Shown piece by piece: positions 24,701-27,700 of a DNA stretch of 64,000 nucleotides. This DNA comes from Mytilus galloprovincialis (taxonomy: Eukaryota; Mollusca; Bivalvia; Mytilida; Mytilidae). Numbering within the stretch: position 1 is the stretch's first letter; the number at the start of each line of letters is the position of its first letter. The stretch is taken from contig NC_134839.1 in assembly GCF_965363235.1 (NCBI RefSeq), positions 59,735,560 to 59,799,559 of the forward strand, written 5' to 3'. A program made the translations under genes and the position numbers. The notes under the pieces are model-generated. The model made no database searches, had not been told where the DNA came from, and worked only from the letters and a program-made list of their open reading frames with translations.

Positions 24701-27700
24701 TACCAACCTCCACCTGTATCTGACAAATTGTGTAACATCACAACATAGAAAGACACATATTCTAGAGGTAGTATGGATGACATGTGGATACATTTCTGAA
24801 AAAAATCCTAAAATTTTGTTTTAAAGTATAAACAATCTAAGACTCTTTCAATATTCAGTGTATTTGACTTTACTTCACTTTACACAAGCATTTTCCATTC
24901 TGCTAAACTAAAAGGCCAATTGAAAGCGTTGGTTCCAATTTTTTTAAATAAAAAAAATGTCCAATGTAGATACAAGTCATAGTATTGTCTTAGGGCGGGT
25001 TAAATGCATCTTGGCTAGCTAAGGGTTACGATCCACTCCCCTTCTCCCCACCCTTGCCAGATTGAGCCAACATTTGCGATAACAACGTGTCAAATACTAT
25101 TGTGCTACTATATATGTGCTGATATTAGACATTTGTTTACTTAGCTTTTATTCTGCATGTGCTATATATGTATTAATATATATATATATATATAAGTACG
25201 TCTGAGTCAGTGACAACCCTACAACAGATGTATCCATCGGATCGCCATCAATGATGGTGATACATGGCTGTGTACATAATGTATATACAACTCGTCTAAA
25301 CATCAACCCAACAATGTTAGATCTGTAAATTTGCTTTCGCAAATTTTTGGTTCTTCCCTCGCCGGGATTCGAACCCATGCTACTGTGATATCGTGACACC
25401 AAATCGCCTGCACTGCAGCCGTCCCGCTAGACCACACGACCACCTGGGCTCTCAATAAAAGAGCTTTCGGTGGGCATGTGTTACCTTTCCACGTCAGTTT
25501 TAATCTAGCGGCGTACTACAGTACATGATATCCATCGGATCGCCATCAATGATGGTGATACATGGCTGTGTAAACATCAACCCAACAATGTTAGATCTGT
25601 AAATTTGCTTTCGCAAATTTTTGGTTCTTCCCTCGCCGGGATTCGAACCCATGCTACTGTGATATCGTGACACCAAATCGCCTGCACTGCAGCCGTCCCG
25701 CTAGACCACACGACCACCTGGGCTCTCAATAAAAGAGCTTTCGGTGGGCATGTGTTACCTTTCCACGTCAGTTTTAATCTAGCGGCGTACTACAGTACAT
25801 GATATATAAGGCATGAAGATGTTATTGTTACAGATCAGCTAAATTATCTATAGTAAAGGATCCTACAAATTAATGTAAGATACAGTCACAGAAAATAATT
25901 ATATTCATAAGTACGTCTGAGTCAGTGACAACCCTACAACAGATGTAGCTAAATTATCTATAGTAAAGGATCCTACAGATTAATGTAAGATACAGTCACA
26001 GAAAATAATTATATTCATAAGTACGTCTGAGTCAGTGACAACCCTACAACAGATGTAGCTAAATTATCTATAGTAAAGGATCCTACAAATTAATGTAAGA
26101 TACAGTCACAGAAAATAATTATATTCATAAGTACGTCTGAGTCAGTGACAACCCTACAACAGATGTAGCTAAATTATCTATAGTAAAGGATCCTACAAAT
26201 TAATGTAAGATACAGTCACAGAAAATAATTATATTCATAAGTACGTCTGAGTCAGTGACAACCCTACAACAGATGTAGCTAAATTGTCTATAGTAAAGGA
26301 TCCTACAAATTAATGTAAGATACAGTCACAGAAAATAATTATATTCATAAGTACGTCTGAGTCAGTATCACAGTAGCATGGGTTCGAATCCCGGCGAGGG
26401 AAGAACCAAAAATTTGCGAAAGCAAATTTACAGATCTAACATTGTTGGGTTGATGTTTAGACGAGTTGTATATACATTATGTACACAGCCATGTATCACC
26501 ATCATTGATGGCGATCCGATGGATACATCTGTTGTAGGGTTGTCACTGACTCAGACGTACTTATGAATATAATTATTTTCTGTGACTGTATCTTACATTA
26601 ATTTGTAGGATCCTTTACTATAGATAATTTAGCTGATCTGTAACAATAACATCTTCATGCCTTATATATCATGTACTGTAGTACGCCGCTAGATTAAAAC
26701 TGACGTGGAAAGGTAACACATGCCCACCGAAAGCTCTTTTATTGAGAGCCCAGGTGGTCGTGTGGTCTAGCGGGACGGCTGCAGTGCAGGCGATTTGGTG
26801 TCACGATATCACAGTAGCATGGGTTCGAATCCCGGCGAGGGAAGAACCAAAAATTTGCGAAAGCAAATTTACAGATCTAACATTGTTGGGTTGATGTTTA
26901 GACGAGTTGTATATATATATATATATACATATGTGCTGTCTGTCTGTACTATGTTTGTGTTGTATGTGTATCTAATGTTATTACATTATTATGTTTTGTT
27001 TATTAATATCAGTCGGTTTAAAGAGCTGTTAAGAGCTCATGTTCTTTGTTATTGTGAATATATGAAACCCGACTGTAAATAAAGATTACTTTACTTTACT
27101 TTACTTTAACAATGTTGCGCCATCTATCGGTTGATTACAGTAGTGGCCATTCCTAATACATTATTCTTGACCAATAGGAGCACTTGAACTCTCTTCAGTG
27201 TGGAGGTTAAAACACGGTAGCGTCTAAAGTCTACAAACTTGGTGAAGCAGGAAAAGAAAATATACGTTGACATTCCAACATTTGTGCAAGAAACATACAC
27301 AAGAACTTCTGTTAGTTAATTAAAAACATTTAAATTATCACTAAACATCGTCGTATGTTTTGGTGTGTAAAGGCTTGTTGCACAATCAGCACGTGTCAAT
27401 TGTTTACCTACATTTTCTACAATTACACGTGAACATGTTATGGGTGCTTTTTTATTGGATGCAGTCAGTTACGACTGCAACCAATTATAATCATTATCTT
27501 GTGTTTCCAAAATTCTATCTTAATCCGCCAACGGTGGAGAGGAGGAAATGGATCGTAAACGTTGGCTAGCGAAGATGGGATAAATGCACGGTACTTTGTG
27601 ATAAATCACTCTTATTCAAGCAAAAAAATCTGAACTGAGATATATGATTCTTGATTGACAACATATCTGTTACGTTTACTTGAAGGATGTGTTTTTCAAC

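What the first reader, a model, noticed from the sequence alone, without database searches (positions are those of the whole stretch)
25197..26915. 1.7-kb inverted-repeat complex of SINE units with a 110-bp array at its centre
Four tRNA-derived SINE units, two on each strand, are arranged as a near-perfect palindrome, and the spacer is 4.8 copies of a 110-bp unit taken from the arms themselves. Arm copies are almost identical, so the structure is young or kept alike by gene conversion. The units include sequence beyond the SINE (443-bp period on the right, 272 bp on the left), which suggests amplification of a composite unit, perhaps by rolling or template-switching replication, not simple SINE insertions. 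It sits in RBKS intron 4, where transcripts could fold into long double-stranded RNA.
Basis: partly seen in the sequence, partly recalled or inferred. Interest (0 to 1): 0.75.

Follow-up and report, generated by a model that had tools for sequence, protein, structure and literature searches.

The report
Palindromic copy of a tandem-inserting retroelement
The mirror-image repeat looks like one young insertion of a 441-base, tRNA-promoter retroelement that is scattered through this animal's genome as tandem arrays, probably because one RNA template (perhaps a circle) is reverse-transcribed round and round into TA-repeat sites, sometimes from both sides at once.

Summary
The complex is real. It is one insertion of a retroelement with a 441-bp unit: tRNA-type A and B boxes, a T7 run, no ribozyme found. 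Exact patterns count 2,243 unit-to-unit junctions genome-wide and 2,184 3' ends. In 57 of 80 mapped blocks the array stops at unit ~112 or ~206 followed by (TA)n, with scattered 5' ends; these two sites follow the only two AGAC words on the unit's plus strand. In 14 of 16 arrays, units differ star-like. One 2-bp insertion is in all 13 units of one array, with no exact match elsewhere. Both arms of this and two other inverted complexes share uncommon variants, as if both target strands primed on one template. Best reading: Penelope-type reverse transcription of a multi-turn, probably circular, RNA into (TA)n. GIY-YIG ORFs lie beside 3 of 35 array loci, one in a repeat ending AGACTC-(TA)n; a hammerhead-like tandem family ends AGACTCGT-(TA)n. 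It works like a metazoan retrozyme but lacks the hammerhead. The 110-bp centre was found only here. No RNA data exist here.

The parts
25175..25194 (.). (TA)n tract at the left end, joined to the second 3'-end site (unit ~196-206, AGACGTACTTAT)
   Evidence: place G000:C2:59760740
25195..25390 (-). unit positions ~196-1 (first-copied part of the left arm)
25391..25531 (-). unit positions 441-301
25529..25664 (-). unit positions 172-1 with a 24-bp deletion that removes the AGAC...TATATA site; reached by a jump from ~301
25665..25947 (-). unit positions 441-159
25830..26366 (-). 4.9 copies of a 110-bp segment (unit ~159-276); a 22-base junction pattern has no exact match elsewhere in the assembly
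26366..26806 (+). one full 441-bp unit, right arm
26381..26391 (+). B box GGTTCGAATCC (consensus recalled)
26459..26477 (+). internal AGAC...TATATAC site (unit 94-112), here read through into the rest of the unit
26737..26743 (+). T run TTTTATT (T7 in most copies), possible Pol III terminator, in the loop of a predicted hairpin
26763..26773 (+). A box TGGTCTAGCGG (consensus recalled)
26807..26918 (+). unit positions 1-112, 3' end of the right arm
26908..26929 (.). (TA)n tract at the right end, joined to the first 3'-end site (unit ~112)

Best explanation
The complex is one recent insertion of a non-coding, tRNA-promoter retroelement with a 441-nt unit. Shown by sequence: most mapped copies end at one of two internal AGAC...TA sites joined to (TA)n; 5' ends are scattered; arrays of 1 to about 28 units are mostly near-identical inside and vary star-like; both arms of inverted arrays share variants. 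Inferred: a Penelope-like reverse transcriptase/endonuclease nicks (TA)n DNA, starts copying at an AGAC-marked site inside the RNA, and runs round a 441-nt (sometimes multi-unit) RNA circle until it falls off. When both target strands prime on the same RNA, the two cDNAs join head to head and give a palindrome, as here. The 110-bp centre arose by repeated back-jumps between two ATCTGT words 109 nt apart in the unit, or by later local duplication.
For: Tandem arrays on many chromosomes. 3' end at unit ~112 or ~206 plus (TA)n in 57 of 80 blocks, 5' ends spread over 1-415 (8 of the 44 loci were picked by such an end). 3'-end counts: 1,715 at 112, 469 at 206, 1 at the third TA-rich site ~300, which lacks AGAC; reversed-pattern controls 0. 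AGAC occurs exactly twice on the unit's + strand, at 94 and 188. L030's 2-bp insertion: 13 of 13 full units of one array, no exact match elsewhere. Arrays keep their own period, e.g. 442 x7, 446 x2, 440 x3, 443 in L030. Variable sites in 14 of 16 arrays with at least 4 units: 43 singletons to 3 shared, 26.9 singletons expected under sequential duplication, P~1e-7. L034 units alternate A B A B A' at three sites, as a dimer circle would. 5 of 5 opposite-strand junction-to-junction pairs in the 100 listed C1 places have 3' ends outward. A variant with 24 places genome-wide occurs in five units on both arms of a C7 inverted array; one with 140 places is in both minus units and the plus unit of the window and on both arms of a C8 array. 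GIY-YIG ORFs beside 3 of the 35 array loci, one in a repeat ending CAGACTC-(TA)n. PMC11167929 (parts 1-2 of 4 read): a Penelope-like protein cuts AT-rich DNA on both strands, extends both, and starts at two adjacent internal RNA sites.
Against: No RNA data: neither the circle nor Pol III transcription is shown. Counting all listed C1 markers (single 3' ends too), 9 neighbouring opposite-strand pairs face outward and 7 are tail to tail, so the outward bias is clear only for whole-unit pairs; I read tail-to-tail pairs as separate insertions (L009 carries two variant sets), unproven for most. L023 and L034, left out of the star test, have shared variants; with all 16 arrays it is 56 singletons to 20 shared, P~3e-4. 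18 of 80 blocks end elsewhere and 5 end at the sites without a detected TA tail. 5' ends are not uniform (KS p=0.016). The Penelope link rests on three loci and a short motif: no reverse-transcriptase domain was matched in the three GIY-YIG ORFs, AGAC lies within 16 nt upstream of 10 of 170 background TA runs, and family B was found partly by searching the motif. DNA-level duplication does occur (L015, 3,195 bp).
Confidence: 0.57

Rival explanations
1. Linear multi-unit transcripts of existing arrays are retroposed whole; each new array is a copy of part of an old one.
For: It explains the fixed 3' end, tandem structure and variants shared across arrays. In the scenario of PMC11167929, Penelope-like loci give mRNA with multiple copies.
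Against: L030's insertion is in 13 of 13 units with no donor in the assembly. Star-like variation and array-specific periods need a single-unit template at some step. A donor absent from this assembly is not excluded.
Confidence: 0.22
2. A copy of a little over one unit is inserted and then expands at the locus by unequal crossing-over or replication slippage.
For: L015 shows a 3,195-bp DNA-level duplication; L023 (types A B C B C D A D) and the C1:27752817 array (intervals repeating every ~2,611 bp) look like higher-order repeats.
Against: The longest fetched array (L025, 20 full units) has 19 identical units and no fixed difference from the family majority, so little time to grow. Few shared variants in 14 of 16 arrays.
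Confidence: 0.13
3. Extrachromosomal DNA circles amplified by rolling circle and integrated at (TA)n by microhomology.
For: It explains homogeneous tandem arrays and TA junctions.
Against: Ends are polar: one fixed at AGAC-TA sites, the other scattered; the TA-rich site ~300 gave one place. Very short copies (36-112 bp) keep the same 3' end.
Confidence: 0.04
4. The window palindrome is an assembly artefact.
For: Not tested with reads.
Against: Inverted and tandem arrangements of the same unit recur on several chromosomes, and this locus has its own 110-bp junction.
Confidence: 0.04

Closest known systems
Metazoan non-LTR retrozymes (Cervera & de la Pena 2020, PMC7229834; parts 1-4 of 6 read)
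   Same: Non-coding units of a few hundred bp, tandem from dimers to large multimers, in a mussel among others; proposed copying of a primed circRNA into tandem cDNA, with Penelope-like elements as strong candidate helpers.
   Different: No hammerhead found in the 441-bp unit. It has tRNA-type A/B boxes and a T7 run. An AGAC...(TA)n 3' site and target are visible here; [quoted passage not shown]
Penelope-like elements (Frangieh et al. 2024, PMC11167929; parts 1-2 of 4 read)
   Same: Tandem copies, AT-rich target, cutting and extension on both strands, two internal reverse-transcription starts.
   Different: The unit encodes no RT or GIY-YIG; no hammerhead; the reported starts were not homologous to the cut DNA, whereas here they abut TA-rich sequence.
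tRNA-derived SINEs
   Same: A and B boxes, non-coding, dispersed, 5'-truncated copies.
   Different: Copies longer than one turn are common (34 of 57 tailed blocks exceed 441 bp, a sample chosen for long matches); the unit includes sequence beyond the SINE-like part; no cluster of 5' ends at the expected start (1 of 57 in 376-386).
SINE-derived satellite PcH-sat of limpets (PMC11121367; abstract and outline seen)
   Same: A tandem mollusc repeat that contains SINE sequence.
   Different: 179-bp, mainly pericentromeric, about 10% of the genome; here dispersed arrays with a fixed retroposition end.

Membership tests
Metazoan non-LTR retrozyme | Type I hammerhead ribozyme in the unit | tested here: not met
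   No exact CUGANGA core, only three words with one mismatch; Rfam scans of the window locus and of two units reported no ribozyme. Hammerheads exist elsewhere in this genome: 29 of 37 matches over the cut-off, 74 of 224,653 candidates scored; three such loci share no match with the unit.
Metazoan non-LTR retrozyme | Small tandem units, dimers to multimers | tested here: met
Metazoan non-LTR retrozyme | Expressed as circRNA | not testable with these tools
   No RNA data
Penelope-like element | Encodes telomerase-like RT and GIY-YIG endonuclease | tested here: not met
   The unit is 441 bp; GIY-YIG ORFs lie only in neighbouring repeats
Penelope-type mobilisation | AT-rich target, two internal RT start sites, both strands extended | tested here: inconclusive
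   Genomic footprint fits for target and two sites and, less firmly, for both strands; the enzyme was not tested
tRNA-derived SINE | Internal Pol III A and B boxes | tested here: met
   TGGTCTAGCGG at 398, GGTTCGAATCC at 16; consensus recalled. ARAGORN finds no tRNA gene
tRNA-derived SINE | Full-length copies starting at the Pol III start | tested here: not met
   1 of 57 5' ends in 376-386, 5 in 387-420; none of 8 lone 3'-end loci
tRNA-derived SINE | 3' tail shared with a partner LINE | not tested
   No LINE search was made
Classical satellite DNA | Long local arrays homogenised by unequal exchange | tested here: inconclusive
   Star-like variation in 14 of 16 arrays and dispersed short arrays argue against it; L023 and L015 suggest some local exchange or duplication

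The most novel reading that the evidence does not exclude
A ribozyme-free circular retroelement. Each tandem unit is a complete Pol III gene whose start (~379-386) directly follows the T7 run (372-378), in the loop of a long predicted hairpin, so a monomer transcript would have its two ends side by side in one helix and could be ligated to a 441-nt circle without self-cleavage. Penelope machinery shared with a hammerhead-like family then rolls the circle into (TA)n DNA, and each new array is a bank of complete promoter-terminator units. This would be a Pol III route to circRNA retrotransposition.
Probability: 0.28. Interest if true: 0.8.

Novelty: new variant of a known kind. Interest (0 to 1): 0.6.

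Why it matters
How animal retrozymes and tandem Penelope-type elements prime and copy circular templates is proposed but, in the papers I saw, not shown. This family leaves clean footprints: a two-site start signal, a simple target, single-template arrays and two-arm palindromes, with about 2,200 exact 3' ends in one genome. That makes multi-turn copying, the start signal and the helper enzyme directly testable, and it suggests that a ribozyme is not required.

Tried and rejected
Hammerhead or other known ribozyme in the unit: none found. 'Any TA-rich site primes': rejected, site ~300 gave one place. Homology between the unit and three hammerhead loci: none at E<=1. tRNA genes by ARAGORN: none. 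Target-site duplications: of 41 insertion complexes, 5 had direct flank repeats; two are the L015 segmental duplication, one (L036) a nearby copy of family B, and L018 and L035 are 69-83% matches; no clean duplication seen, and a TA target would hide short ones. T-run length as a ligation scar: 28 of 34 array majorities are T7, uninformative. Proteins: 28 of 63 ORFs of at least 110 aa were scanned, so other coding repeats may have been missed. Literature: the listings showed no title or abstract start that describes a ribozyme-free, tRNA-promoter, Penelope-mobilised tandem element; I did not read most of those papers, and subscription journals are mostly missing.

Full report
What is there. 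The window holds a 1.75-kb mosaic of one 441-bp repeat unit between two (TA)n tracts: a minus-strand left arm, a 110-bp array, and a plus-strand right arm. The arms contain inverted repeats of 380 and 253 nt at 100%. The unit was defined from the right arm and from the commonest unit of a 20-unit array elsewhere; the two differ at one base.

It recurs. A 444-bp window query gave 207 matches in the window's own assembly (1.38 Gb), mostly in tandem at 441-bp steps on many chromosomes; only 37 of 704 first-look candidates were scored, so this is a lower bound biased to long matches. I fetched 35 loci. Exact pattern counts over the whole assembly: 2,243 unit-to-unit junctions, 1,715 3' ends at unit ~112, 469 at ~206, with 0 for the reversed control patterns; diverged copies are not counted. 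On the first 67.2 Mb of C1 the listed places form 126 clusters; 58 of these are a single 112-end with no exact junction nearby. Of these I fetched 8 (the first four on each strand): one covers a full turn (from 104), two start at 157 and 188, four start at 10-22, one is complex. The largest array seen is known from places only: 26 exact matches on a 441-bp grid of 28 positions on C8.

Retroposition signature. Among 80 unit blocks in the 35 loci, the window and the 8 lone-end loci, 50 end at ~112 with a TA tail, 7 at ~206 with a TA tail, 5 at those sites without a detected tail, and 18 elsewhere (inverted junctions, rearranged or old copies). The 8 lone-end loci were picked by such an end. The 5' ends of the 57 tailed blocks spread from 1 to 415, lengths from 36 bp to 9.2 kb. 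A fixed 3' end with a scattered 5' end is the mark of target-primed reverse transcription (established knowledge). The unit has three TA-rich words on its + strand (104, 202, 298) and only two AGAC words (94, 188). The two TA words that follow AGAC are the 3' ends in use; the third gave one place.

One template per array. Pairwise differences average 2.8 within loci against 5.1 between (between-median 3.0, composite loci included). For arrays of at least 4 units (16 arrays), variable sites are 56 singletons to 20 shared; leaving out L023 and L034 (L015's longest block, 3 units, did not enter), 43 to 3, where a sequential-duplication coalescent expects 26.9 singletons (P~1e-7). L030's 2-bp insertion is in 13 of 13 full units there, with no exact match elsewhere. 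Two other variants were less private: one in 7 of its 45 places in L014, one in 8 of its 24 places in L024. Several arrays keep a period of their own (440, 442, 443, 446). L034 alternates two unit types, and a C1 array repeats the interval series 866/865, 441, 422, 441, 441 twice; both fit multi-unit circles, but also local duplication.

Why a palindrome. Five of five neighbouring opposite-strand junction pairs in the C1 list have their 3' ends outward, as do the pairs in the variant lists on C5, C7 and C8 (one search listed 100 of 140 places) and the window. Against this, when single 3' ends are counted too, the same C1 stretch has 9 outward and 7 tail-to-tail neighbours. Some tail-to-tail pairs sit 18-32 bp apart, within what looks like one TA tract, others 180-921 bp apart; in L009 the two copies carry different variants, so I read tail-to-tail pairs as separate hits, unproven for the rest. 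The stronger evidence is shared variants: five units of the C7 array, two minus and three plus at 441-bp steps, carry a variant with 24 places in the genome, and in the window the 376A variant (140 places) is in both minus units and the plus unit. I did not fetch the C5, C7 and C8 arrays. Stacks of very short copies in L036 suggest repeated use of one tract.

Which enzyme. GIY-YIG matches (PF01541) lie in ORFs of L022, L016 and L009; no RT domain was matched in those ORFs, so 'Penelope-like' is my reading. The L022 repeat ends CAGACTC followed by (TA)n. A 95% copy in L016 reads on through the same AGACTC into ATATAATTTTT; my query stopped at AGACTC, so this is read from the letters. A second tandem family (~570-bp spacing in L021, 545 in L041, and others) ends AATTTAGACTCGT-(TA)n, with AGACTCGTTTATATTT or a close form inside the array, and carries a hammerhead-like core by eye, CTGAAGA-GACA...TGTC-GAAA, which Rfam did not report. 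Frangieh et al. 2024 describe for a Penelope-like protein AT-rich cutting on both strands, extension of both, and two internal start sites. I therefore prefer Penelope machinery over a LINE, with moderate confidence: background AGAC near TA runs is 10 of 170, and family B was sought by the motif.

How a circle might form (inferred). The A box at 398 puts the expected Pol III start near 379-386 (rule recalled), just after the T7 run at 372-378. The unit folded as a circle is more stable than its dinucleotide shuffles (100 shuffles, z -4.8), with the T run in a hairpin loop and the flanks paired. A monomer transcript would thus have adjacent ends. No RNA evidence exists here.

The local oddities. 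The 110-bp junction pattern has 3 exact places, all in this window. The unit has two ATCTGT words 109 nt apart and the junction gains one base, so polymerase back-jumps or later slippage are both possible; I do not decide. The left 274-bp period results from a jump (unit 301 to 172) and a 24-bp deletion that removes one AGAC-TA site. A PfkB match about 5 kb downstream supports a ribokinase-type gene; 'intron 4' is unverified.

Verdict. The object is a member of an unusual, recently active family, which works like a retrozyme or Penelope-type element but fails the defining hammerhead and coding tests of those families.

Noticed in passing
L028:2336 and L029:3151: Two array pieces about 20 kb apart on C9 have mutually inverted flanks and overlapping unit coordinates (393/402), as if an inversion broke one array.
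   Followed up: no
L015:2549-8055: A whole inverted complex with its flank is tandemly duplicated, period 3,195 bp.
   Followed up: partly
L021:5511-7323; L041:1472-2301; also L036, L037, L043, L054: A second tandem family with ~545-570-bp spacing, a hammerhead-like core by eye and 3' end AGAC[TC]... joined to TA-rich sequence.
   Followed up: partly
L009:638-1072; L016:4002-4643; L022:4256-5152: GIY-YIG ORFs in repeats next to arrays; in L009 the ORF lies between ~70-bp inverted repeats, seen by eye.
   Followed up: partly
L016:3765-3935 and 4137-4307: A 171-bp direct duplication lies on either side of a short truncated copy of the unit.
   Followed up: no
L051, L053, L055, L057: Four of eight lone short copies start at unit 10-22, around the B box, suggesting a stop or cut in the tRNA-like region.
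   Followed up: no
window 37458-39476 and 49356-51365 (-): Two similar coding stretches, the second split over two ORFs; Pfam gives DUF229 and a weak sulfatase match for the first, the second was compared by eye only.
   Followed up: no
window 42262-42957 (-): Weak PNMA (gag-like) match.
   Followed up: no
window 6336-7429: 54-bp minisatellite with mixed 37/54-bp steps.
   Followed up: no
window 12042-12172, 45507-45728, 45901-45989: Three separate arrays of related 43/22-bp palindrome-like units.
   Followed up: no
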